IMG/VR virus record: IMGVR_UViG_3300035698_017111
Coordinates: 62,001-126,000 of that record
Length of the DNA stretch: 64,000 nucleotides
Strand: one strand, 5' to 3'
Source: a virus
Shown: piece after piece, positions 3,477 through 62,262 of the stretch
Numbering within the stretch: position 1 is the stretch's first letter
Layout of the letters: each line of letters opens with the position of its first letter
Translations under genes and position numbers: made by a program
Notes under the pieces: generated by a model
Seen by the model: only the letters and a program-made list of their open reading frames with translations
Database searches by the model: none
What the model was told of the DNA's origin: nothing

Positions 3477-3833
3477 ATGAAGAAACTCAGTGTTGTCTTA
3501 TTCGCAGATAGTGAAGATACGAGAAGACAGGGGTTAATGTTCCACAAACCTCTAAAAAAAGATGAGTGTGCTTTGTTCTTTTTCCCTCAAGCAGGAAAAC
3601 ATTCGTTTTGGAACAAAAATGTAGAATTCCCCATCTCCCTGATATTTTGTGATCAAGATGGTAAGATAGAAGATATTCAATATCTTGAAGCACAACAAAC
3701 TAAAGCTGTAGTGCCTAAATCAAATCGTGTAGTTTATGTTATTGAAGCACACAAAGATGTCCCAATTGAATTGGGATTGAAACAAAACATTGATATTCGT
3801 ATGGTGGGACGAGAGGTTATGTTCGATGGTTAG
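3477..3833 (+). CDS. DUF192-family protein
   Basis: 118 residues. The layout matches the DUF192 (COG1430) family: R-QGLMFHKPL near the N-terminus, a FFFPQ strand, the FWNKNVEFPISLIF block that corresponds to the family's fW-M-k-N-T-ipLD signature, and a late VYVIEA strand. The molecular function of the family is not settled; bacterial members are often secreted, but no signal peptide is visible here. The gene lies 2 bases after its neighbour, and its end overlaps the start of the next gene by 8 bases, so the genes are translationally coupled. Confidence 0.8.
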   Translation: MKKLSVVLFADSEDTRRQGLMFHKPLKKDECALFFFPQAGKHSFWNKNVEFPISLIFCDQDGKIEDIQYLEAQQTKAVVPKSNRVVYVIEAHKDVPIELGLKQNIDIRMVGREVMFDG

Positions 3834-4851
3834 TATCCCTATACAGATTCAGAAAGATCTTGATGATATCGATATCGTCGCCAAAGACCTTCAAATGAAG
3901 CTCTATGTGGTGGGTGGTTTTCCACGAGATATCGTTTCTGGAATTAGTCTTACTGATGAAACAGATTTGGATGTAACAGAAGCGAACGGCAATGCTTTCG
4001 ATCTGGCTTTTTTTGTTGCTGCAAAATATGGACTACCAGAACCAGAGATATACGAAAGCACAGGAACTGCCCTTGTGACAATGCCAAGTGGAAGACCTGT
4101 TGAATTCCATAATGCTGCTTGGAATGTCCCACACATTGTCGATCAACTTTATGTTCTTGGAATTGAACCAACTCCATTGAATAAAGATATCTATTCTCGT
4201 GATTTTACAATCAATACACTTTTGTTTGATCCAGAAGACAACGAAATTATTGATATTACTGGCCAAGCCAAGGCTGATATTCAGAATAAAATACTAAGAA
4301 CTCCTCTTGCACCAAGAAAAACCTTATCAATCAACCCAAAGATTATACTAAGGGGAATTCGGTTTACTGTTCAGATGGGCTTGACAATGGACCCAGAATA
4401 TGTTAGAGAGGTGTCTAATTTTGTCCCGTATTTGGTTCACTTTATGCAGATGCACCCAGACAGTAAGATGGTGAGAAGAACGGTTGAAAAGACACTTGGA
4501 ATTGACCCACACAGGGCAATGGAAGAGTATCGCAAATTAGGAATTCTCGAATACCTACCCAAGACCACCGAAATGGATGCTGCTCTTAAAAAGGATTTGT
4601 TTGGGACAAGCATAGTTCCTGTTGCGGCCAACTTTTCTCAGTACACAACTGCACAAACAACGATGATAGATTACTTGTTGGAACAGAGAGAAAAACACAA
4701 AGCCTACATGAGACGTAAAAGACGAGAAGAACAACAACAAAGAGAAAAGAAATTCGATGTTTTGGAGAAGGCAAGAAACGGATTCTTTACACAAGAAGAT
4801 CCTGTTCCAGAATTGACCAAAATAAAAGAGGACAGGAGTAAGAAAAAATGA
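3826..4851 (+). CDS. CCA-adding/poly(A) polymerase superfamily nucleotidyltransferase
   Basis: 341 residues from the ATG at 3826, which sits inside the end of the preceding gene; an upstream in-frame ATG at 3790 is less likely. The pol-beta-type head domain is clear: KLYVVGGFPRD (the GG-x-x-RD signature), then TDLDVT, whose two aspartates bind the catalytic metals, then SRDFTINTLLFDP and a RGIRF segment, as in class II tRNA nucleotidyltransferases and bacterial poly(A) polymerase. The reaction would be template-independent addition of nucleotides to RNA 3' ends. The C-terminal 100 residues are highly charged and helical (RRKRREEQQQREKK). A second member of this superfamily follows two genes later, so the two may differ in substrate. 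Confidence 0.85.
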   Translation: MVSIPIQIQKDLDDIDIVAKDLQMKLYVVGGFPRDIVSGISLTDETDLDVTEANGNAFDLAFFVAAKYGLPEPEIYESTGTALVTMPSGRPVEFHNAAWNVPHIVDQLYVLGIEPTPLNKDIYSRDFTINTLLFDPEDNEIIDITGQAKADIQNKILRTPLAPRKTLSINPKIILRGIRFTVQMGLTMDPEYVREVSNFVPYLVHFMQMHPDSKMVRRTVEKTLGIDPHRAMEEYRKLGILEYLPKTTEMDAALKKDLFGTSIVPVAANFSQYTTAQTTMIDYLLEQREKHKAYMRRKRREEQQQREKKFDVLEKARNGFFTQEDPVPELTKIKEDRSKKK

Positions 4852-5390
4852 CAGATAAAATAGACATAGTAGAATCTAATTTTGGCGTATTGGGACACAC
4901 AGCTGATATAGAAAAAAGACATCCTATCGTGCAAAGTGGCTTAGGAATACTTGATACTGGAAAATATGTGAAGGCACAAGATATTGGACTCATGGATGTG
5001 TCTCAAGATCAACAGCCAATTGCACCACCAACAAACGAAGCAGACAATCAGGGGATTTCGCCAGAAGAGATTAAATCAAAATCTTTGCAGATATATTACG
5101 AGACAACAGGACAGGATGACTCGTCACCATATGCTCGTGATTACGTTGATATGATGTACAACAATGCAGCAGAGGGGATGTCTGCAGAGGTTGAACAAAC
5201 ATACAATTATATGGAAAACATGTTGCAAGTCCTACAATCACCTGGTATGGTGTTAATAGAGGGAGAAGAACAGGTAATAGATGCAACAGAAACCATTATG
5301 CTAGTTCTCAATAACAATAGAAGTTTATATCAAGATATGGTCAATGCCATTGAACAAGCCAAAAGTGAGTTAGGTGCAATAGGAATTTAA
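4848..5390 (+). CDS. Hypothetical acidic protein
   Basis: 180 residues, start ATG overlapping the TGA stop of the nucleotidyltransferase gene (ATGA). Acidic and Gln/Asn-rich; the C-terminal 90 residues look helical, with YNYMENMLQVLQ and NNNRSLYQDMVNAIEQ. A linker around residues 60-75 is rich in Pro and Gln. No family or catalytic motif recognised. Its tight coupling on both sides suggests joint expression with the two nucleotidyltransferases. Confidence 0.7.
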   Translation: MTDKIDIVESNFGVLGHTADIEKRHPIVQSGLGILDTGKYVKAQDIGLMDVSQDQQPIAPPTNEADNQGISPEEIKSKSLQIYYETTGQDDSSPYARDYVDMMYNNAAEGMSAEVEQTYNYMENMLQVLQSPGMVLIEGEEQVIDATETIMLVLNNNRSLYQDMVNAIEQAKSELGAIGI

Positions 5391-6538
5391 TGATGCCATA
5401 TGAATGGCTCGTCAAACAAGATGAAAACGGAAACCCTTACAGATTTTGGCAACCAGAAGAACACTCTTCCTCTATGCCAACATCTGATGTAAATGACCTT
5501 GCTCAGGTTGAAAATGCGAAAGCCCTCCTAAGAAAATATTCAGAATACAACAATGAAGAAGATTGGATTGAGGATCAGCATGGCAATATGTTGACTCCAC
5601 AACAAATTTTTGGTGCTTGGCATCAAAGATACAAACCAGAGGAATTTGATCAACCAGCATCAGTTCTTATGGATGAACAAAGCAAACTTCTACAAGCGAA
5701 AATACCAACAGCTGGGAAAAGAAATTGGTATAGGAAAGCTCAGGTACAAATGCGATTAGAAATTCCAATATCAGATTGGCTTGTCTCTGTAATGCAAGAT
5801 CTTAAAAGACAAGGTATGACATCCCTGATAGTTGGTGGTGCTGTTCGAGACGCCATTGTCGGTTCTCCATCAAAAGACATAGATGTTGAAGTTTATGGTA
5901 CAAATTACGAGACTTTGTCAAACATTCTGAACAACTATGGGAAAGTTAATCTTGTTGGCAAGGCATTTGGTATAATTAAGATAAGTGATCCAGATGGAGA
6001 GGAGTATGATTTTTCAATTCCAAGAAGAGAAAGTAAGATGGGTAGGGAACATAAAGATTTCTCTGTGGAATTTGATGAAAAGATTACGCCAAAAGAAGCT
6101 GCATCTAGAAGAGACTTTACAATAAACTCTCTTGCATACGATCCTCTAACAAAAGAAATGCATGATTATTTTGGTGGAATGAATGATATCGAAAATGGAA
6201 TCCTTAAGGCAACCAGTCCAGCGTTTGCTGAAGATCCGCTTCGTGTTCTTCGTGGTATGCAGTTTGCCGCTAGGTTTGGATTTACAATAGAACCACAAAC
6301 TGCAGAAATGGCCAAGAGTCTTAAGGATGAACCTATTGTAATTGAAAGAGTATCAGAAGAATGGATGAAACTCTTTACAAAAGGTAAACATCCAGGTAAA
6401 GCCATACAGTATTTAATAGATACTGGTTGGATGGAAAACTATCCAGAACTCCAAGCTCTTGTCGGTTTGAGACAAGACTCTGAATGGCATCCAGAAGGAG
6501 CTATGGTGAGAAAAATAATAAAGAAAAAGAATGTTTAG
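5390..6538 (+). CDS. cca: tRNA CCA nucleotidyltransferase, N-terminal half of a split gene
   Basis: 382 residues, starting in a TAATGATG overlap with the preceding gene. The first 110 residues have no match I recognise and end in the NWYRKA motif (residues 112-117). The catalytic head follows: IVGGAVRD near residue 146, KDIDVEVYG with the two metal-binding aspartates, then RRDFTINSLAYDP and EDPLRVLRGMQFAARFGF, all hallmarks of bacterial Cca. The neck and body run to QDSEWHPEG at about residue 371, exactly where bacterial Cca continues into its HD domain. Here the frame instead runs into 11 unrelated residues and a stop, followed by a homing endonuclease gene. The missing HD part resumes in the gene at 7469. 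Whether the head works alone is unknown, though many CCA enzymes lack the HD domain. Confidence 0.85.
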   Translation: MMPYEWLVKQDENGNPYRFWQPEEHSSSMPTSDVNDLAQVENAKALLRKYSEYNNEEDWIEDQHGNMLTPQQIFGAWHQRYKPEEFDQPASVLMDEQSKLLQAKIPTAGKRNWYRKAQVQMRLEIPISDWLVSVMQDLKRQGMTSLIVGGAVRDAIVGSPSKDIDVEVYGTNYETLSNILNNYGKVNLVGKAFGIIKISDPDGEEYDFSIPRRESKMGREHKDFSVEFDEKITPKEAASRRDFTINSLAYDPLTKEMHDYFGGMNDIENGILKATSPAFAEDPLRVLRGMQFAARFGFTIEPQTAEMAKSLKDEPIVIERVSEEWMKLFTKGKHPGKAIQYLIDTGWMENYPELQALVGLRQDSEWHPEGAMVRKIIKKKNV

Positions 6539-6599
6539 TGAGAGGATAAACAGTACCTTCCTTAGAATATATAGTTAAGAGTATTCTTGGGAGATGAAA

Positions 6600-7496
6600 A
6601 TGCATAAATTTAATTGTTTAAATTGTGGAATAGAAAAATCATCAAAATGGAAAAAAACAAAGTTTTGCAGCGTGAAATGTTCGAATGTTTATAACGGAAG
6701 CAAAGGCAAGGTCGGGGGCAATACCTCTAGTTTAGACTGTATGGTAAAAAAATATGGAAAAACAAAAGGGAAGAAAAAATACGAAGAAAAATTAAAGAAA
6801 TTATCTAAAGCACATAAAGGTAGGGTTGGTTCGATGACGGGCAAAAAGCATCCTGATTCTACTAAAAATAAAATTGCCAAATCTCTTAAAGATTTTCATA
6901 GAAAAAATGGTCACAAAACATTTGATGAAACACACAATATATCAAAAGAAGAATTATCTAAAAAAATGAAAGGCATATTTTCCATAAATTGGTTTGTGAA
7001 TAAATATGGAAAAAAAAAGGGCAGAGAAAAATATCAAGAAAGATCAAACAAAATAAAAAAGACAACATTTTTCAAAACATATAACAGAATGGACAACAAA
7101 AATAATTATTCTAAAAAATCACAAGATTTATTTTGGACAATATATAGAAACCACAAAAACCACCTATCAAATAAAATGGTTTATTTTGCAGAACTAAATC
7201 ATGAATATGGATGTGAAACAAATAGGAATTTTGACTTTGTTGTAATTGATAATAAAAAGATAATAGAATTTAATGGAGATAAATTTCATGCAAACCCAAA
7301 TGTTTTTAAAGAGACAGATAAACCAAATCCATATCTTAAAAACACAACAGCACAGCAAATATGGGAATTTGATAGAAAAAAAATAGAGAAAGCACTATCT
7401 AATGGTTATGAAATTTTAATTGTTTGGGAAAGAGATTTCGATAAAAACCCAGAGGAAGAGATAAAAAAATGCCAGCATTTTCTCCTGAACAAATAA
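6600..7496 (+). CDS. Homing endonuclease, Vsr/PD-(D/E)XK-like with NUMOD-type repeats
   Basis: 298 residues from ATG 6600, which has GGGAG at the right distance; ATG 6594 is possible. The N-terminus holds a CxxC...CSVKC zinc finger. Two copies of a KYGKxKGxxKYxE motif and a segment KGRVGSMTGKKHPDSTK resemble the NUMOD DNA-binding modules of phage homing endonucleases. The C-terminal part (FDFVVIDNKKIIEFNGDKFH) has the D...E-x-N/D-G-x-x-H layout of Vsr-like or EDxHD nucleases such as I-Bth0305I. A+T content is higher than in neighbouring genes, suggesting recent arrival. The gene sits exactly between the two halves of a cca-type gene, so it is probably a free-standing homing element that split it. 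Confidence 0.8.
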   Translation: MHKFNCLNCGIEKSSKWKKTKFCSVKCSNVYNGSKGKVGGNTSSLDCMVKKYGKTKGKKKYEEKLKKLSKAHKGRVGSMTGKKHPDSTKNKIAKSLKDFHRKNGHKTFDETHNISKEELSKKMKGIFSINWFVNKYGKKKGREKYQERSNKIKKTTFFKTYNRMDNKNNYSKKSQDLFWTIYRNHKNHLSNKMVYFAELNHEYGCETNRNFDFVVIDNKKIIEFNGDKFHANPNVFKETDKPNPYLKNTTAQQIWEFDRKKIEKALSNGYEILIVWERDFDKNPEEEIKKCQHFLLNK

Positions 7497-9346
7497 AAGA
7501 AATGGGGAAACAATATGTTTTGGGTGAACCAGAACCATATGATCCATTTAATAAAGAACACAATGATCCAAATAAGTATTTAATACAATACGGAACTGTG
7601 GAGATTCATACAGCCCACACATTGGATGCTGCTGCTCAAATTGCAGACAGAGAGGGACTACAAGGAGACGATAGAGCTGTTTTAATCGCCTCTGCACTAG
7701 CACACGATCTTGGTAAAGCAGATGTTACTCAGGATGAGATGAAAGATGGTAAGATGAGAGTAACGTCCAAGGGACATGAGGGATTAAGTGTAGATCTTGC
7801 TAATAGTCTTTTGAAAAGAATGGGTATTAAGAAAGACATAGTGGACAGAGTATTACCTATTGTTGGCCATCATTTGTTACATTTACATTTTGACCCAGAT
7901 TCTAAAAACGGCAATGCTAGACAGATTGCAGAAAAACTATATCCAGCAAGTATTAAAGAATTAATATATCTTATTGAATCGGATCATTCTGGGAGACCGC
8001 CCATTGAGGGTGGATTGCCTGAATTGGCAGAACAGTTACAAGCTTCAGCTCAAGAACAAGGGGCATATGATGGTAGGGTTCCACCACTGATTCAAGGAAG
8101 AGATATTTTGCATCTTTTCCCAGAGGCTGGTCCTGCTATTGGACAAGTTCTGCAAGAAGTACGTAAAAAACAACTTCGAGGACAGGTTAGTACTCCAGAA
8201 GAAGCTATGTATGCGGCAGAAATGTCAGCACAAAAACTAATTCTTTTGGTTAATGGAAGGGATGTTTTAGATGTTCTTGGTGGGGTTGGTGGACCACATG
8301 TTGGTGAGATCTTGAATAATGCATGGGAAGCTCAGAAAAATGGTGTTTTTACCGATAGAGAAGGGGCTTTGACGTGGTTGCAAGAACAATATACTAGTGA
8401 ACCAGTGCCTCAAAATGAGGTTATAGACAATGTTCCAAACGACAATATGGAGAGATTCGAAGCAATGGAAAGTAATTTAAGATTCTCAGAACTCAATATG
8501 AATTACGTGACGAAAATATCCGACAACATGTCGGATAAAGCAATTGTTGCTGCGTCTCTTGTTGTTAGTGAATTCAAGAGTGGACAACCAGATTGGAGTC
8601 TTATTCAAAAATACATTAGTAGCAATTCAGATTTTAAATTAGAAGAAATGCAGTTGTTTTATGAATCTGATCCAAAATATGCAACTGAGACATATGAACA
8701 AATATTAGAAGAGTTTCTAAATGCTGATATAGAGGCATTTTTAGATAGTTATATGAAAACAGGACAGTCAACAACAACAGAATATGGAGACGTTCCATTC
8801 GGAGTACAAGAAGGTTCGTTACATGCAGAGGAACTGGCAGATGCCTTTGGTTCTGAAGCTGTAGCACAAGCAATGGAATTGATACAAATACACAGTCCAG
8901 AATCTCTCGATGGAATTACGTACATTGGTCTTGTTGATAAGGGAGATATGTTCGGGGTTACGGAAGATGAGTTAACGCAAAAACTCAGAGAACAAAGAGG
9001 AGAACCCATAGGGGATGCTGGTAGTAAGGAAGCATTTAGACTCAATGCAGAAATAATTAAGGGAAAGAAACAAGAGTTCGAAGCAGAGTCTAATGCACAA
9101 AAAGACAATCTATTACGATCATATCCTCCAGATGTTGTTGCACTATGGGAAGAAAGAAATGCAAGTGAAGTTCTTCCACTGATTATTGCGGAGGTTATAG
9201 TACACGAAGCAGAACACGCTCATGGTGCGGAAGGTGAAGGGCAACCCATTGCAGAAGAAAGACAATTTCTTCAAGAAGCTATAGTTCGATTAAATAAAAA
9301 AAGACAAGATGATGGTATTCCAGAATTACCAGTTGTTTTAAAGTGA
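7469..9346 (+). CDS. HD-domain protein (C-terminal half of split Cca) fused to a HEXXH-containing domain
   Basis: 625 residues. The start ATG lies inside the 3' end of the homing endonuclease gene and has GAGGAAGAG in front. After about 40 residues, TVEIHTAHTLDAAAQIA and ALAHDLGK (HD pair near residue 78) and VGHHLLHLH reproduce the HD phosphohydrolase domain that follows the WHPEG element in bacterial Cca, where it has phosphodiesterase and phosphatase activity on RNA ends. The middle is helical and unrecognised. Near residue 579, VIVHEAEHAHG is a HEXXH zinc-metallopeptidase-like motif followed by a glutamate-rich stretch; peptidase activity is inferred from the motif alone. The fusion of an HD domain with such a segment is unusual. 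Confidence 0.75.
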   Translation: MPAFSPEQIKEMGKQYVLGEPEPYDPFNKEHNDPNKYLIQYGTVEIHTAHTLDAAAQIADREGLQGDDRAVLIASALAHDLGKADVTQDEMKDGKMRVTSKGHEGLSVDLANSLLKRMGIKKDIVDRVLPIVGHHLLHLHFDPDSKNGNARQIAEKLYPASIKELIYLIESDHSGRPPIEGGLPELAEQLQASAQEQGAYDGRVPPLIQGRDILHLFPEAGPAIGQVLQEVRKKQLRGQVSTPEEAMYAAEMSAQKLILLVNGRDVLDVLGGVGGPHVGEILNNAWEAQKNGVFTDREGALTWLQEQYTSEPVPQNEVIDNVPNDNMERFEAMESNLRFSELNMNYVTKISDNMSDKAIVAASLVVSEFKSGQPDWSLIQKYISSNSDFKLEEMQLFYESDPKYATETYEQILEEFLNADIEAFLDSYMKTGQSTTTEYGDVPFGVQEGSLHAEELADAFGSEAVAQAMELIQIHSPESLDGITYIGLVDKGDMFGVTEDELTQKLREQRGEPIGDAGSKEAFRLNAEIIKGKKQEFEAESNAQKDNLLRSYPPDVVALWEERNASEVLPLIIAEVIVHEAEHAHGAEGEGQPIAEERQFLQEAIVRLNKKRQDDGIPELPVVLK

Positions 9347-9912: not shown

Positions 9913-12111
9913 ATGAAGACTCAAGATATTGTAATGTTACCACCATTTACCGTTAACATGATGATGATGTCATTATCTGAAACGGTTAACTATGGGCATC
10001 AGATGCACAATATTCCTGGTGCATGGTTAAAATCAAAAGGAGAAGGAGTTGTCGTTGCTGTTCTTGATACTGGACTTCCAGTCCATAGAGATTTGGAAAA
10101 CCAAATATTAACTGCTGAAAATTTCACAAATTCTCCAATTCAAGATCTTGTTTCTGGACATGGTTGTGTCTCTCCAAACGATTATGTCTATACTTCAATG
10201 TGTGGTCTGCAAAAAATACAAGATGTTTTTGACAGATCCCCTGGAATTGTTCATTTTCAGCAAGACGGATCAGTTATAAAAGACTGTTCTAGGAATTCCA
10301 TCCATACATTCTCTCTTGATAAGAAGGGCAATACGGTTAAATCTAACATTATTGCAGTTCATAAAATACCATACAATGGAGATGTTTTTTGTATTAAAAC
10401 AAAACAGGGAAAATTGACACTGACTCCATGGCATCCAATATATATAAGGAAAACAAACCTTAAGTCATTCGTCAAAAAAAGAGCAGACGAATTACAAATT
10501 GGTGATTCTATAGCGTTACCAGAAAGCGGTCCAAGTTTTCATTCATATTTAAACATTCCATATAGAGAATACTACAAATGCCAATATTGTGGTTATAAAT
10601 CTTCTGGGTTCCGTAGAAAACAATGTAGAAAATGTAATAAATATAAATGGCATAATGGAAAAACAATTGATTGTATTAAACTTGACGAAGATCTTGCATT
10701 CCTAACTGGTCTTGTCGCATCTGATGGACATAGTATGAAAAGTTCTATGAGTATAGAGTTTTGCAATATGGATGAAAAATTAATAAATATATTTGAAGTT
10801 TTATGTAAAAAATTATTTAACAAAAAATGTAAAAGATATAAAGACAGTAGAAACAAAAAACTAATCAGAACCAGGATACATTCTAAAGATGTTCAAAATC
10901 TTTTTGTAAAATTAGGAATAAAAAAAGGAAATAAAACTCATAATCTTTTATTTCCAGAACTAATATCAAAATCTCCAAGATCTGTTTTTTGTTCATTTGT
11001 TGCAGCCTATGTAGAGGGCGACGGAAGTGTAGACAAAAAAGATAAAAGAATAAGGATAGTCTCTGGAAGCAAATCTTTTAGTGATCATCTTTCAATGAAC
11101 CTTAAATTTTTTGGTATTAAATCTTCAATATCTAAAAATAAAGCAAGCAAAAGAAATTTTGGATATGGCACATATAATTGTAAGGAGTCTTACACTATTA
11201 GATTAGTCTCTGATTATGAAATAGTAAAATATTTAAAGTTAAAAAAATCAAAAGAATCTCAAAGACAAATAATTCAATCTAATGTAATTTCCATTGAAAA
11301 GAAATCTTATAATGGGCACATGTTTGACTTTACTATAAAAGATTATGGAAATTATGTGGCAAATGGAATGATAGTCAGCAATACGCACGTCTCTGGAATC
11401 ATAGGTGCCGAAGAGAATAATGAAGGCGTCATAGGAATAGCTCCGAAAGCAAGACTCATAATAGCGAAAACGTTAAGTGACAGTGGTGGTGGAACAGATG
11501 AAAGCATAGCCAATGGTATCTTCTGGGCTATAGAAAAAGGTGCTGACATTATCAACATGTCTTTAGGGGCACCGGCGAAACATGAAAGTATGTTTGTTCA
11601 AACAAAACAGGCAGTACAAGCCGCAAATAGGGCTGGAATTATATTGGTCTGTGCCGCAGGAAATGAATCTGCAGCAAAAGTAGGTGTTCCTGCAAGATGG
11701 CCAGAATGTATTGCAGTCTCTGCGGTAAATTCAAAGAAAGATAGAGCAAGCTTCTCAAACAGAGGTGCTTCGTTGGACTTTGCTGCAGCTGGTGTGAATA
11801 TTCTTTCTACATTTAAGGACAATACTTATGCGGAATTGAGTGGAACCTCGATGGCATGTCCACAAATCGCAGGTATTGCAGCTTTGATTCTTTCTGAACA
11901 TAGAAATAGAATGGACAATACAAACACACCTGTCGATACACCGGAACAGTTAAGTGAACATTTACAGAAGATATCGTTAGACTTGGGTAAGGCTGGACAC
12001 GACACTAATTTTGGTTCTGGTTTGCCTGTGTATGGTAGAGCAAAATATTTTGTTCCCAATCCACCAAAAAAGAAACCTTGGTGGCTGAGATGGATACCGT
12101 TTTGGGGGTAG
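9913..12111 (+). CDS. Subtilisin-like serine protease (S8) interrupted by an intein
   Basis: 732 residues, of which 406 are an intein. The host protein has all three catalytic elements of the S8 family: VVAVLDTGL (Asp), GHG/THVSG (His) and LSGTSMACPQIAG (Ser), plus the oxyanion-hole segment CAAGNE. The intein splits the catalytic His block between HG and THV, so the protease cannot be active before splicing. After splicing the enzyme would be about 326 residues, somewhat short for a secreted subtilase; no signal peptide is visible, so it probably acts in the infected cell or the virion. The C-terminus ends in a short Trp-rich tail. No strong Shine-Dalgarno sequence precedes the chosen ATG. 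Confidence 0.9.
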   Translation: MKTQDIVMLPPFTVNMMMMSLSETVNYGHQMHNIPGAWLKSKGEGVVVAVLDTGLPVHRDLENQILTAENFTNSPIQDLVSGHGCVSPNDYVYTSMCGLQKIQDVFDRSPGIVHFQQDGSVIKDCSRNSIHTFSLDKKGNTVKSNIIAVHKIPYNGDVFCIKTKQGKLTLTPWHPIYIRKTNLKSFVKKRADELQIGDSIALPESGPSFHSYLNIPYREYYKCQYCGYKSSGFRRKQCRKCNKYKWHNGKTIDCIKLDEDLAFLTGLVASDGHSMKSSMSIEFCNMDEKLINIFEVLCKKLFNKKCKRYKDSRNKKLIRTRIHSKDVQNLFVKLGIKKGNKTHNLLFPELISKSPRSVFCSFVAAYVEGDGSVDKKDKRIRIVSGSKSFSDHLSMNLKFFGIKSSISKNKASKRNFGYGTYNCKESYTIRLVSDYEIVKYLKLKKSKESQRQIIQSNVISIEKKSYNGHMFDFTIKDYGNYVANGMIVSNTHVSGIIGAEENNEGVIGIAPKARLIIAKTLSDSGGGTDESIANGIFWAIEKGADIINMSLGAPAKHESMFVQTKQAVQAANRAGIILVCAAGNESAAKVGVPARWPECIAVSAVNSKKDRASFSNRGASLDFAAAGVNILSTFKDNTYAELSGTSMACPQIAGIAALILSEHRNRMDNTNTPVDTPEQLSEHLQKISLDLGKAGHDTNFGSGLPVYGRAKYFVPNPPKKKPWWLRWIPFWG
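10165..11382 (+). other. Intein with LAGLIDADG endonuclease inside the subtilisin gene
   Basis: 406 codons in frame. It starts at Cys1 (CVSPNDYVYTS, block A) directly after extein Gly, contains TPWHPIYI (block B with its Thr and His), and ends NGMIVSN (block G) before extein Thr+1. The residue before the terminal Asn is Ser instead of the usual His. Between the splicing blocks are two LAGLIDADG motifs (LTGLVASDG and VAAYVEGDG) and a zinc-finger-like CxxC...CxxC insertion near the first third. Thr as +1 nucleophile is normal for inteins. Confidence 0.88.
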
Positions 12112-12647: not shown

Positions 12648-13436
12648 ATGGCTAAGGGACAAAACAATAGAAAGGGAATGATTTATTCCGCTACCAACAA
12701 GATAAATAACAAAAAATATATTGGACAAACTATCAGTACGCTATCTGTTAGAAGAAGTGGTCATAAAAGCAAGGGAAAGAGAGCTTGTCCTTATTTTGGT
12801 AGAGCAATAGAAAAATATGGAGTCAATGGTTTTGTATGGGAGATTATAGAAGATGATCTGCCTATTTCTGAATTAAATGAAAGAGAAATATATTATATTG
12901 CAAAACATAAAACAAGAAACAAAATTTATGGATACAATATCGATATTGGTGGCTTTGTTCATAAAGAATATTCGATAGAAGCAAAATTAAAAATACAAAA
13001 TACGCATAAGGGTAGAAAATTTTCAGAAAATCACAAAAAAAAGATAAGTGAAGCAAAAAAAGGAAAAGGTTTTTCTAAAGAACACATTAAAAACCTTTCT
13101 ATTTCTCATATTGGAAAAGTATCTGGAAAAAAAGGTATTAAGAATTCTGAAAAAACACGTAAAAAGATTAAGGAATCTGTAAGGTTTAAAAATTACCAGA
13201 AAGGACTCTCAAAAAACAACACTAGTGGATATAAGGGCGTTTGTTGGGACAAGAGATATGGAAAATGGCTATCGCAAACCACTGGCATGAATAAGAAAAT
13301 GGTTTTTATAGGTTATTTCGGAACTAAAGAAGAAGCTGCTATTTCTTATGATAAAAAAATAGTCGAAATGGTTGGTATCGAAAATTGTGTCACTAATTAT
13401 GATCTTGGGTTAATTGGATGTAAATGCTATGAGTGA
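12648..13436 (+). CDS. GIY-YIG homing endonuclease with NUMOD3 and AP2-like domains
   Basis: 262 residues. The N-terminal catalytic domain carries GMIYSATN...KKYIGQT, the GIY-YIG signature, with an arginine (SVRRSGH) and a glutamate (NEREIYYI) at the expected later positions. The middle has NUMOD3-type basic repeats (GRKFSENHKKKISEAKKGK). The C-terminus, SGYKGVCWDKRYGKWLSQ to GYFGTKEEAAISYD, is an AP2 DNA-binding domain, a combination well known in phage homing endonucleases. It is A+T-rich and lies between two operon genes, overlapping the next start by 8 bases. It does not obviously interrupt a gene. Confidence 0.9.
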   Translation: MAKGQNNRKGMIYSATNKINNKKYIGQTISTLSVRRSGHKSKGKRACPYFGRAIEKYGVNGFVWEIIEDDLPISELNEREIYYIAKHKTRNKIYGYNIDIGGFVHKEYSIEAKLKIQNTHKGRKFSENHKKKISEAKKGKGFSKEHIKNLSISHIGKVSGKKGIKNSEKTRKKIKESVRFKNYQKGLSKNNTSGYKGVCWDKRYGKWLSQTTGMNKKMVFIGYFGTKEEAAISYDKKIVEMVGIENCVTNYDLGLIGCKCYE

Positions 13437-23915: not shown

Positions 23916-23989
23916 ACAGTGATAGCTCATTTTGGTAGAGCATCGGCCTTCAACGCCGGTTGTTATAGGTTCAATTCCTATTCACCCAA
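23916..23989 (+). tRNA. tRNA with anticodon UCA (opal-reading, tRNA-Trp-like), imperfect acceptor stem
   Basis: D stem GCTC/GAGC with GG in the loop, anticodon stem TCGGC/GCCGG with the 7-base loop CTTCAAC (anticodon TCA at 23950-23952), variable TTGTT, T stem ATAGG/CCTAT with loop TTCAATT. The body resembles bacterial tRNA-Trp (CCA changed to UCA). Only the inner four acceptor pairs form (GTGA/TCAC); the outer three (A-A, C-C, A-C) do not pair, and no CCA follows position 73. It could decode UGA, as suppressor tRNAs of other phages do, or be a tRNA-like RNA with another role such as Y RNA for the Ro60-like protein downstream. Confidence 0.7.
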
Positions 23990-38910: not shown

Positions 38911-41900
38911 TTACATTGTTTGATCTGTAGATTTTGCTTTGACGACTTGTATTATTTTTGCAACTACATCATTGATATTGAAATTAATTTCATCTTCAGT
39001 GAACCTTAATACTTCCCAACCGAATCCTGCTAATCTAGAGTCTCTATCGGTATCTTTTTCTATGTCCTCTGGCATTGAATGAAATCTTTTACCATCGGAT
39101 TCAACAATAACCTTTTGTATAGGAAAAAAACCATCAACTGTTACCTTTGCCATATGTACTGGTTCTGGTTTTTGTTGTGCTTGAAAGTCTATAGGTAAGT
39201 TGCCAGTTTTCTGTGCTTCTTCAATACCGGAATATAGTTTTTGCTCAATAGACGTGAGACGAAACATTCCAGTACGAGGACCAACTACCCATTCATTGTC
39301 AAGGTTTTCACCTGCTTGTTGCGGCGGCTGCTTAGGTTCCATAGGTGGTTTCATTTTGCGTTTATTCGGACGCCTAACAGAAGGCTCCATCTCTACAGCC
39401 TGTTCGTAACTTTTCATTTGAGTGTCGTGTGCCATAGAAGCACCTGATGGAGCTCCACCGCCTGCGGCACCACCACCACCCGACATAGATGGTGCAAGAG
39501 AATCACCTGGTAAACCAGGACCAGATTGTCCACCTGGCAAATTACCACTATTTTCATCCTGAGGCATACCACCACTGCCAAGACCGCTACTACCGCCACC
39601 ACCAAAACCTGATCCCATACCGCCTGGACCATCCTGACCACCTTGCATTTGTGGGGCAATGCCGAGTTGTTGTTGATAAGCTTGTTCGAGACGAACTCTT
39701 TCAGTTTCTATATCGTAATCAATATTCATTTTTTCACAGAGGAACTGTGTTGAGACAACACCCTTGTCCCAAAGTTGAATGTAGGTATTGTTCTTTTGTG
39801 TCTCATCTCTAAGGTTAAGGTCATTCCACTTAATCTCTGGATAATCAAGTATTTTCTTGCCACTTTTTGATTCGGTATAAAAACCACGCATCCTTGCTTC
39901 TGTTTTGTATACTTTGTCTGTGATCCAAAATGCCAATAGACCCTGAATCATAACCAATCGTTTAATTGTTGCCTCAATACCAATAGCAGCTTGAGAATAA
40001 CTAGGTCCAGTACCACTTAAGAGAGCTTCATTCACACCAAGACCCTTAATGAGTGCTTTATCAATTAATTCATATTCTTTAGTTAACTGAAGAACCTTAC
40101 CAGCGGCTCCAACCCATTGAAAATCAAAAGCATGGTGTGTCACAAGTGTAAGGTTTGGATCATTAGCAGTAACTGCTAATTGTCTCTGGGTATCACCAAT
40201 ATCATTCGGTCCAGCAGGACGTTGATCGTTACCAATCTTACAAACCTTAACTGGTAGAATATGTCTCTCTGCCACAATCCACTGTGCCTGTCTTAATTTA
40301 TCTTGATATGCGAGGACTGGGAACAGAGGAGCAATTAAACTACGACCATAAGCCTGATATGGGATTTCATCATGCTTTAAGTGAGTAATGGCATTTGAAC
40401 TAAGTGGAATTGGTTGTTGTGCTAGAATTAATCTTCTAAGATTCTCTGGAATCTGTGCATAGATTTCTGCTGGCTGTTTGTTCCAAACGATCTGCTTCAG
40501 TGTATCGTCTGGAATAAGAGATATAATGGGTTCGGTAGGAATGAGTGGATTCATTTTAACATCAATCCAATCAGGATTCATAACAGAGACACTGGCTATT
40601 TGTGAATCTTCGTGATTACATGGTTCTCCATTCTTTTTCTTTCCAAAACCACCACATTCTTCACAGGAAATAGACACGAACGGAAATGCGTCTCCCATGC
40701 AGAAATACTCAAATGCAATAAGGGGCAACCATTTCTCTAATCTAAGTCTTTTCTTTAAGTTGTCAAAATGTTCTTTCCTAATAGGATCACCAATTACATT
40801 TTCAAAACCTGCAAATGGGAATTGTGAATAAAATCTAAGAGATGAGGCAATGGTTGGATCGTTTTGTGCGAAAAACCTACAATTAGAAACCTTAAATCCA
40901 GAACATAAATAACTTCTTTCTGGATCAATCTGTAGATCATACCCAACACCAGTATAAAGATATTTCTCAATCTTTTCTATTGGTTGTGCGAAATATTCAT
41001 TCCCGTCTTCGTCTTTGGTAAAAAATCTGAGAACACGATCATGACCGTCATATTCGAAATCTTCAGGTATCTTGTTAGACTTCATGTACGGTCTGATCTT
41101 ATGAACCTCTGAGGCGGGAACAAAAATACGATAGACCCAAGTTCCGATCCTACCCATAGAATCTTCAAATCGCTCATATCTATTCAGAGTGCAAGAGATG
41201 CCACACATCAATAACATGAAATATAACTGATCCGCCATATCTTTACTGGAGTTATTAGCAACAAGTTTGTTCTGTGTCTTTGTGAAACTACCATCACCAT
41301 CAAAGTATCCACCAAGTACGTGAAGCATTTGTTCACGGTTAAGATGCGTGATTTCCTCGGTAAATTTCTTGTTAGAAAGTTTACCTACAATAAATCGTTT
41401 ATAATCAGAAAAATATCCCTTAATAAATTTTGCTATTCTAGTGCATGATTTTCCATGTTTATATTTATTGTAATTGGGTATTAGATTTTCAACAACTGGC
41501 AAAAATAAATTTAATTCATCATTGTTGATGTTTAGATATATGGCGTCGTCATAAACAGTTCCATCGGCTATGCAAAGCCCAACAGACCATAAAAAATCAT
41601 CTGTCGCAGTCAAAAACACAGAGTTGTATCCGTATTTTTCTTCTTTAAATTTTGGGATAGGAGTTAATAGAAAATCTTTAAGTACGGCTTCATCGGCACG
41701 GATTCTTTTTATTGGCCAGTTTTCAGATTGAATAAAATCTTTTTTAGGATACGGACCTTTCTTGCCTTCTCGATATAATTTATCACCATATCTTTTTACT
41801 GCATTTTTAAGAGGCTTAGATTCAATGCAAAAAAGATTATGTTCTTCGGATATTTCTAGTTCATGATAATACCCAGAACATTTAATCTTAACAAACGTTT

Positions 41901-42408
41901 TGTCTTCACATTTTCTTTCGGATATATGTACTGGATTCCTCCAGTTACCTTCACCAGAAACGATAGAACAAGATTTAATGTTTTCATACAAAAAACCACC
42001 AGTTACCGTGTCTTCTACTGTGGATTCTGGAACGAACTCGAAGTCTTTAACTTCAACGTAAGACATGTCAGAACATAATAACCCAGATGTGGACATCAAG
42101 ACCCATTGATAAACTTCCCTTCGCTTGGTAGGTATTTGCCAGTTAACAGGAGTATGGATTGGTGAATAAAACGATGGGGATGTGTACATAACCCTTGATG
42201 CGGCTAAACCTGCACCTGCTGCAGATGCAGTTTCATACGATTGGGCTTCTCTAATAACTGAAGGTTGATCTCCAGTTAGTATTCTTGAAGAAGATGCACT
42301 CTCGACAGTACCAGTTTTCATCAAATCACCAGATTCACTGATGATCTGTTCAGCTGTTCTTCCCGTCTTGGAGAACACTTTATCGACATTGCTAAATATG
42401 TATGTCAT
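38911..42408 (-). CDS. Portal protein with intein and C-terminal DUF559-like nuclease domain
   Basis: 1165 residues, of which 398 are an intein. The host protein reads WVLMSTSGLL/CRFFAQNDPTIASSLRFY, then FPFAGF and a long portal core (VAERHILPVKVCKIG, LLSGTGPSYSQAAIGIEA, ITDKVYKTEARMRGF), as in portal proteins of large myophages. A Gly/Pro/Gln-rich linker follows at about residues 970-1050. The last 100 residues, LTSIEQKLYSGIEEA, KVTVDGFFPIQKVIVESDGKRFH and LAGFGWEVLRFTEDEI, carry the D...E-x-D-G...H and closing lRf pattern of DUF559 (Vsr-like PD-(D/E)XK) nucleases. A portal fused to such a nuclease is unusual. A TCGTATA motif lies 36-42 bases upstream. Confidence 0.85.
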   Translation of the reverse strand: MTYIFSNVDKVFSKTGRTAEQIISESGDLMKTGTVESASSSRILTGDQPSVIREAQSYETASAAGAGLAASRVMYTSPSFYSPIHTPVNWQIPTKRREVYQWVLMSTSGLLCSDMSYVEVKDFEFVPESTVEDTVTGGFLYENIKSCSIVSGEGNWRNPVHISERKCEDKTFVKIKCSGYYHELEISEEHNLFCIESKPLKNAVKRYGDKLYREGKKGPYPKKDFIQSENWPIKRIRADEAVLKDFLLTPIPKFKEEKYGYNSVFLTATDDFLWSVGLCIADGTVYDDAIYLNINNDELNLFLPVVENLIPNYNKYKHGKSCTRIAKFIKGYFSDYKRFIVGKLSNKKFTEEITHLNREQMLHVLGGYFDGDGSFTKTQNKLVANNSSKDMADQLYFMLLMCGISCTLNRYERFEDSMGRIGTWVYRIFVPASEVHKIRPYMKSNKIPEDFEYDGHDRVLRFFTKDEDGNEYFAQPIEKIEKYLYTGVGYDLQIDPERSYLCSGFKVSNCRFFAQNDPTIASSLRFYSQFPFAGFENVIGDPIRKEHFDNLKKRLRLEKWLPLIAFEYFCMGDAFPFVSISCEECGGFGKKKNGEPCNHEDSQIASVSVMNPDWIDVKMNPLIPTEPIISLIPDDTLKQIVWNKQPAEIYAQIPENLRRLILAQQPIPLSSNAITHLKHDEIPYQAYGRSLIAPLFPVLAYQDKLRQAQWIVAERHILPVKVCKIGNDQRPAGPNDIGDTQRQLAVTANDPNLTLVTHHAFDFQWVGAAGKVLQLTKEYELIDKALIKGLGVNEALLSGTGPSYSQAAIGIEATIKRLVMIQGLLAFWITDKVYKTEARMRGFYTESKSGKKILDYPEIKWNDLNLRDETQKNNTYIQLWDKGVVSTQFLCEKMNIDYDIETERVRLEQAYQQQLGIAPQMQGGQDGPGGMGSGFGGGGSSGLGSGGMPQDENSGNLPGGQSGPGLPGDSLAPSMSGGGGAAGGGAPSGASMAHDTQMKSYEQAVEMEPSVRRPNKRKMKPPMEPKQPPQQAGENLDNEWVVGPRTGMFRLTSIEQKLYSGIEEAQKTGNLPIDFQAQQKPEPVHMAKVTVDGFFPIQKVIVESDGKRFHSMPEDIEKDTDRDSRLAGFGWEVLRFTEDEINFNINDVVAKIIQVVKAKSTDQTM
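40882..42075 (-). other. Intein with LAGLIDADG endonuclease inside the portal gene
   Basis: 398 codons in frame. Cys1 opens the intein (CSDMSYVEVKDFEF), VSN closes it, and extein +1 is Cys. Two LAGLIDADG motifs, VGLCIADGTV and GGYFDGDGSF, are about 120 residues apart. As in the subtilisin intein, the residue before the terminal Asn is Ser, not His. The insertion lies in a conserved portal segment (LL/CRFFAQNDP). Confidence 0.85.
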
Positions 42409-61863: not shown

Positions 61864-62262
61864 GGGCTCGTACTGGTTTCGACGGGAAGCAGAACGGGAA
61901 AAGCTGCAAGCCGAGCATGTCAGATCCATCTCGATAAACTGGTCTGTCAACAATAGCTGACGAAGCTATGCCAATCGCTGCCTAAGAGAACCTTAAGCAG
62001 TCGCCCTCTCTAAGTTCCGTCTGTAACGAAGAAAAGGGCGTCATCAAACAGACTCGTTCAGAGGTCTACTCCTGGGGTATCTGAACTAAAAAGCACAGGA
62101 CCGCAATAACCGAATGGTAACGACAAAACGTCAGACGGCTGACGGTCGAATGAGTTGTTACAGCCATGGGGAGCGGTTACTGAAAGTGTAGCAGCCTAAG
62201 CTTGTAGACGCTTTTTCTAGACTCTTTTCGGACGGGGGTTTCGATACCCCCCGAGTCCACCA
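61864..62262 (+). ncRNA. ssrA: Transfer-messenger RNA (tmRNA)
   Basis: About 399 bases. The ends form the tRNA-like domain: GGGCTCG at the start pairs with CGAGTCC near the end, the T arm GGGGG-TTTCGAT-ACCCC lies before it, and CCA is encoded. TGGTTTCGACGGG near the 5' end is a near-universal tmRNA element. The tag frame after UAG reads GAC GAA GCT ATG CCA ATC GCT GCC TAA (61959-61985), so stalled proteins would end in (A)DEAMPIAA; starting at GCT 61956 would add an Ala. The tag stop lies in a CTGCCTAAG/CTTAAGCAG hairpin as in proteobacterial tmRNAs. Function: ribosome rescue, with the tag marking proteins for proteolysis. No smpB gene is visible in the window. Confidence 0.93.

What the first reader, a model, noticed from the sequence alone, without database searches (positions are those of the whole stretch)
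5390..9346. A cca-type gene split by a homing endonuclease exactly at the WHPEG/HD junction
The first half ends in QDSEWHPEG and the second resumes TVEIHTAHT; joined they give the classic Cca border. Between them are 11 foreign codons, a stop, a complete Vsr-like homing endonuclease gene, and 40 codons with a new ribosome site and ATG inside the endonuclease gene. Both halves keep their key residues, so they may work as two separate proteins. The second half has also gained a HEXXH-containing C-terminal region.
Basis: partly seen in the sequence, partly recalled or inferred. Interest (0 to 1): 0.7.

Follow-up and report, generated by a model that had tools for sequence, protein, structure and literature searches.

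The report
Phage tRNA-repair gene split by endonuclease
In this uncultured phage, a selfish DNA-cutting gene has landed inside the gene for a tRNA-end-repair (CCA-type) enzyme, cutting it into two protein-coding pieces at a loop between domains; this is a known kind of event in a new host gene, and related phages show that the same gene has been invaded or split at several other points.

Summary
Window 5390-6538 encodes the head and neck of a CCA-type nucleotidyltransferase, ending QDSEWHPEG plus 12 extra codons. A complete endonuclease gene follows (6594/6600-7496). Then comes 7469-9346: a 42-codon lead-in, the HD domain and a long C-terminal region.

IMG/VR relatives give the uninterrupted allele: 41 distinct loci carry both parts in one reading frame at this point. 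One of them, L033, has the window's full domain layout. L030, the closest relative, is intact here but is split elsewhere by an unrelated HNH endonuclease gene.

No group I intron was found at settings that do detect the T4 td intron. The 54 extra residues are too few for an intein. The C half has its own start with a typical ribosome site. Most relatives of this endonuclease sit between split-intein halves; this one does not.

Best reading: an EDxHD (Vsr-like) homing endonuclease gene inserted without an intron or intein, giving a gene in pieces like nrdA/mobE of phage Aeh1. The two proteins probably reassemble; that step is inferred. The HEXXH region was not gained at the split: both close relatives have it. 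The same site takes an in-frame 160-245-residue domain in four other phages.

The parts
5390..6538 (+). N half of the split cca-type gene: about 120-residue leader, nucleotidyltransferase head, neck, ending WHPEG then AMVRKIIKKKNV and TAG
   Evidence: PolyA_pol 4e-24, PolyA_pol_RNAbd 2e-7, PHROG 2244 tRNA nucleotidyltransferase 2e-57
6497..6509 (+). left copy of an imperfect 13-bp direct repeat at the insertion edge (GGAGCTATGGTGA)
   Evidence: 10 of 13 identical to 7592-7604; about 0.005 by chance in a fixed register, judged after the fact
6594..7496 (+). EDxHD/Vsr-like homing endonuclease gene with a NUMOD3-like motif; likely start ATG 6600
   Evidence: NUMOD3 7e-4 (just under cut-off), PHROG 22677 8e-25, invariant IEFNGDKFHANP block shared with 6 relatives
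7469..7594 (+). 42-codon lead-in of the C half with its own ATG and ribosome site, beginning inside the endonuclease gene; no homologue found
7592..7604 (+). right copy of the imperfect direct repeat (GGAACTGTGGAGA), start of the resumed host reading frame
7595..8402 (+). HD domain and class II tail-like part of the cca-type gene
   Evidence: HD 7e-8; continuous with the N half in relatives; invariant ligands
8403..9346 (+). long C-terminal region ending in a HExxHA motif, shared with L030 and L033 (ancestral, function unknown)
3790..4851 (+). second, shorter nucleotidyltransferase-head gene upstream, without HD domain; conserved next to cca in L030 (62%) and L033 (55%)
4848..5390 (+). small gene of unknown function between the two nucleotidyltransferase genes, overlapping both

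Best explanation
A free-standing homing endonuclease gene of the EDxHD (Vsr-like) family was inserted into the coding sequence of a phage CCA-type tRNA nucleotidyltransferase, in the loop between the neck and the HD domain. It brought neither a self-splicing intron nor an intein, so the host gene became two genes: a head-neck protein that stops 12 codons into the insert, and an HD-tail-HEXXH protein that starts from a new ATG inside the 3' end of the endonuclease gene. Shown here: the anatomy, the intact allele in relatives, the absence of intron or intein signatures, and intact reading frames and motifs on both sides. Inferred: both pieces are translated from one transcript and reassemble non-covalently into a working enzyme, as in split NrdA of phage Aeh1, and the endonuclease spreads by cutting uninterrupted cca alleles.
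For: Uninterrupted alleles: 41 distinct IMG/VR loci have the WHPEG-type motif and the HD motif 30-44 residues apart in one ORF, including L033 with the same head, HD and HEXXH layout; L030, the nearest relative by the upstream gene, is intact at this site. Insertion by this kind of element is recurrent in the gene: L030 is split about 75 residues upstream by an HNH endonuclease ORF with new gene ends. No intron: Rfam at E up to 10 finds nothing in 6480-7640, while the same setting finds the T4 td group I intron at E 1.3e-4. No intein: only 12 + 42 residues lie outside the endonuclease and none of the intein blocks is seen. Separate translation: C-half start has a Shine-Dalgarno energy equal to the median of the phage's genes. 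Endonuclease family: tblastn relatives include Vsr-annotated phage proteins and 'fractured gene' endonucleases. The site is a loop between helices 302-306 and 322-339 in a confident model of intact L016 (mean pLDDT 82.8). Precedent: PMC2988022 and PMC7344957 describe nrdA/mobE, T4 mobA and the unspliced CB7_245 case.
Against: No second phage with the same split was found, so maintenance by selection cannot be measured and decay of the enzyme cannot be excluded. Reassembly is not shown. The Rfam gathering threshold missed the T4 introns, so only the permissive search is informative, and a very divergent intron could escape it. The window comes from a metagenome assembly; the junctions were not checked against reads.
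Confidence: 0.8

Rival explanations
1. The insert is a group I (or group II) intron carrying the endonuclease gene, and the mRNA is spliced to give one CCA enzyme.
For: The joined halves match the continuous protein exactly, and most phage genes interrupted by endonucleases in CB7 proved to be spliced introns (PMC7344957).
Against: No intron family at E up to 10 in 6480-7640, with a working positive control. Only about 90 + 100 bases lie outside the endonuclease ORF. None of the four junctions that restore WHPEG-T (before, within or after the shared GGA) puts a U before the 5' site, which group I introns need. The right flank is an open frame with its own start.
Confidence: 0.08
2. The gene is dead: the insertion ended the enzyme's function and the halves are decaying, with the upstream second nucleotidyltransferase (3790-4851) covering the need.
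For: No reassembly has been shown; the upstream paralogue is intact and somewhat more conserved (62% and 55% in L030 and L033) than the split gene.
Against: 382 and 625 codons remain open with head and HD motifs intact, and the C half has a typical ribosome site.
Confidence: 0.15
3. A split intein or an eroded intein joins the two proteins.
For: The endonuclease belongs to the family that mostly sits between split-intein halves (48 of 61 relatives by motif, about 50 by eye).
Against: 12 + 42 non-endonuclease residues cannot hold an intein (known ones need about 130, general knowledge); no C/S first block, no HN end: the flank ends QYG before T.
Confidence: 0.02
4. Ribosomes hop from GGA before the insert to GGA after it, as in T4 gene 60.
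For: GGA stands at both edges, as take-off and landing codons do in gene 60 (general knowledge).
Against: The gap is about 1.1 kb with a whole gene in it; no stop follows the first GGA; GGA is simply the conserved Gly codon.
Confidence: 0.01

Closest known systems
nrdA split by mobE in Aeromonas phage Aeh1 (genes-in-pieces ribonucleotide reductase)
   Same: An endonuclease gene sits inside a conserved phage enzyme gene with no splicing element; two polypeptides result.
   Different: Host gene is cca-type, not nrdA; the endonuclease is EDxHD/Vsr-like, not HNH; reassembly is proven for Aeh1 (PMC2988022) and only inferred here; the break here falls at a domain border.
Fractured genes with split inteins and a Vsr-like endonuclease (Dassa et al. 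2009; known from memory and from citations in PMC10448857)
   Same: Same endonuclease family, lying between the two halves of a host gene; relatives L124, L126, L127 and L128 show this arrangement.
   Different: No intein parts flank the endonuclease here, so nothing can ligate the halves.
HNH endonuclease CB7_245 in the nicotinamide phosphoribosyltransferase gene of Pectobacterium phage CB7
   Same: Endonuclease-interrupted enzyme gene whose transcript was not spliced by RT-PCR (PMC7344957).
   Different: HNH endonuclease, different host gene, transcript tested there.
T4 topoisomerase gene 39/60 split by mobA
   Same: Endonuclease insertion splits a conserved gene into separate subunits (PMC2988022).
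   Different: HNH endonuclease; gene 60 also has a ribosomal hop.

Membership tests
EDxHD (Vsr-like) homing endonuclease | Vsr-like catalytic block with conserved acidic/His residues | tested here: met
   IEFNGDKFHANP with D, E, D, H, K and E invariant in 7 relatives; Vsr-annotated phage proteins match
EDxHD (Vsr-like) homing endonuclease | NUMOD-type DNA-binding modules before the nuclease domain | tested here: inconclusive
   NUMOD3 E 7e-4, 20.0 bits against a cut-off of 20.4
EDxHD (Vsr-like) homing endonuclease | Cuts the intact allele and homes into it | not testable with these tools
   needs protein and an uninterrupted target
Fractured gene with split intein | Intein N and C parts at the two gene ends | tested here: not met
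   only 12 and 42 residues, no intein blocks; relatives do show them
Intron-borne endonuclease | Self-splicing intron core around the ORF | tested here: not met
   negative, positive control
Gene in pieces by endonuclease insertion | Relatives carry the gene uninterrupted at the same point | tested here: met
Gene in pieces by endonuclease insertion | Two separately translated pieces | tested here: inconclusive
   stop codon, new ATG and ribosome site present; no expression data
Gene in pieces by endonuclease insertion | Pieces assemble into an active enzyme | not testable with these tools
   biochemistry needed
Class II CCA-type nucleotidyltransferase with HD domain | Head with GGxxRD, DxD, RRDxxxN, EDxxR; neck; HD with H...HD...D | tested here: met
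   Foldseek of intact relative L016 to CCA enzymes, best E 9.6e-16

The most novel reading that the evidence does not exclude
The break-end sequences added at endonuclease splits are docking devices that let the halves find each other without an intein. In the window the N tail is basic (AMVRKIIKKKNV) and the C lead-in is net acidic. In L030's independent split, each new end carries one CxxCG zinc knuckle, which together would make a zinc ribbon across the break. If true, phages rescue endonuclease-split enzymes by evolving split mini-domains.
Probability: 0.15. Interest if true: 0.65.

Novelty: new member of a known kind. Interest (0 to 1): 0.42.

Why it matters
I found no earlier report of a tRNA nucleotidyltransferase gene split by an endonuclease in the papers searched. 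It adds an intein-free case for an endonuclease family that otherwise mostly travels with split inteins. Because one phage gene family here shows an intact form, an intein, an in-frame domain insertion at the same loop and two independent endonuclease splits, it is a good set for asking how phage enzymes survive being cut in two.

Tried and rejected
Group I/II intron: rejected with the positive control; note that the gathering-threshold search missed the T4 td and nrdB introns, so that mode proves nothing. Intein: rejected on length and missing blocks. Ribosomal hop: rejected. Homologue of the 42-residue lead-in: none at useful E-values in all loci held; its last residues (YLIQYG) resemble the ends of the in-frame insert domains of L013, L015, L019 and L035, but too briefly to claim descent. 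AlphaFold of the C half with three sequences was useless (pLDDT 46). tblastn of the C half in 50,697 phage records gave nothing. The HEXXH region has no Pfam or PHROG match and only two relatives. The in-frame insert domain has no Pfam match and no relative in the genome collection. Relatives of L030's HNH endonuclease, sought to test the zinc-knuckle idea, were not found.

Full report
What is there. The window is part of a 146.8-kb uncultured phage record. ORF 5390-6538 has a leader, a nucleotidyltransferase head (PolyA_pol, E 4e-24) and a neck domain (PolyA_pol_RNAbd, 2e-7), and ends QDSEWHPEG-AMVRKIIKKKNV. ORF 6594-7496 encodes a complete endonuclease; the better start is ATG 6600, with GGGAG six bases upstream. 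ORF 7469-9346 overlaps it by 28 bases and carries 42 lead-in residues, the HD domain (7e-8), a tail-like match and a long C-terminal region ending in HExxHA.

The intact allele. A first scan of IMG/VR gave 11 relatives and a second, profile-based one gave 70 loci. In 41 distinct loci the WHPEG-type motif and the HD motif lie 30-44 residues apart in one frame. L033 has the full layout in one ORF: head, WHPEG, HD and HExxHA. L030 is the closest relative (upstream gene 62% identical; C half 38% over 614 residues) and reads ETWHPEGVVIRHTILAM without a break. No locus found shares the window's split.

HEXXH is ancestral. L030, L033 and the window align over the C-terminal region with AEVIxHExxHAxG conserved. 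Its function is unknown: no Pfam or PHROG match, and only these three phages were found to have it in IMG/VR.

Not an intron, not an intein. A permissive Rfam search of 6480-7640 found nothing at E up to 10. The same search on a T4 stretch of equal length found the td group I intron at 27 bits, E 1.3e-4, although the gathering threshold missed it. The junctions that restore the protein share GGA on both sides and never put a U before the 5' site. Outside the endonuclease the insert codes for only 54 residues, which is too few for an intein, and none of the intein blocks is present.

The endonuclease. Its phage matches include Vsr-annotated proteins, and it matches phrog_22677. Among 61 relatives from a profile scan, 48 have intein sequence next to the gene by motif, and two more by eye; L124, L126, L127 and L128 lie inside split-intein IMPDH/GMP-reductase-like, ribonucleotide-reductase-like and DnaB-like genes (assignments by my reading of the sequences). 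This is the 'fractured genes' family of Dassa and others (cited in PMC10448857; the paper itself is not held). The window copy is the only one in its record and has no intein parts. Three relatives without intein parts (L134-L136) lie just upstream of an HD-domain gene.

How it most likely works. The break falls in a loop: in the AlphaFold model of intact L016 (mean pLDDT 82.8) WHPEG ends at residue 320, between helices 302-306 and 322-339, just before the HD domain, and Foldseek matches the model to CCA-adding enzymes. The C half has its own ATG with a Shine-Dalgarno energy of -6.0 kcal/mol, equal to the median of the phage's genes and better than about 93% of all ATGs. Both halves keep their motifs. 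The simplest reading is two proteins from one transcript that associate, as in split NrdA of Aeh1 (PMC2988022), where activity was shown. Reassembly here is inferred. In class II CCA enzymes the tail contacts the tRNA (general knowledge), so the N half alone is unlikely to be fully active. An imperfect 13-bp direct repeat (10 of 13) flanks the insert; it may be a trace of the insertion but was noticed after the fact.

A gene under repeated attack. L030's cca is split about 75 residues upstream by an HNH endonuclease ORF. L011 and L013 carry an intein at RRDFTxN/SLAYD. L013, L015, L019 and L035 have an in-frame domain of 160-245 residues exactly at WHPEG, and three of these domains are homologous (E 1e-5 to 1e-25) with no Pfam match. 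In L066 the head and HD halves are separate genes with small unrelated ORFs between them, and L107 and L110 have an HD-half ORF without the head in the same frame.

Verdict. A sound observation of a known kind of event, in a host gene for which I found no earlier report, with one twist: the endonuclease family normally comes with split inteins and here does not. The wider family context is more interesting than the single split.

Noticed in passing
L030 6609-6660 and about 7590-7650: In L030's independent endonuclease split of cca, the N half ends LSIEKCKKCGEKQIHTKE and the C half begins MNNLKCDKCGSKDVEVI: one CxxCG zinc knuckle on each new end, as if a zinc ribbon could bridge the break.
   Followed up: partly
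L013 8391-8858, L015 6814-7344, L019 6796-7479, L035 6712-7446: An unknown 160-245 residue domain is inserted in frame exactly after WHPEG in four phage CCA-type enzymes; three copies are clearly homologous, no Pfam match and no relative in the genome collection.
   Followed up: partly
window 3790-4851: A second, shorter nucleotidyltransferase-head gene just upstream of cca, conserved with it in L030 and L033 and lacking the EDxxR motif (NPKIILR at that place).
   Followed up: partly
window 9913-12111: Subtilase gene interrupted in frame by a LAGLIDADG intein, two genes downstream of the split cca.
   Followed up: partly
window 12648-13436: GIY-YIG endonuclease with an AP2 domain, free-standing.
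   Followed up: no
window 38911-42408 (- strand): Portal-like protein carrying an intein with LAGLIDADG motif and a C-terminal DUF559 (restriction-like) domain fused to the host protein.
   Followed up: no
window 23917-23988 and 61864-62262: A tRNA with anticodon TCA (possible UGA reader) and a tmRNA with tag DEAMPIAA encoded by the phage.
   Followed up: no
L134-L136 (same loci as L121-L123): Close relatives of the window endonuclease lie immediately upstream of an HD-domain gene, as the window one does, though the HD proteins differ.
   Followed up: no
L066 394-3071, L107 6607-7446, L110 7836-8618: In L066 the cca head and HD halves are separate genes with no obvious endonuclease between them; L107 and L110 have an HD-half gene whose head was not found nearby.
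   Followed up: partly
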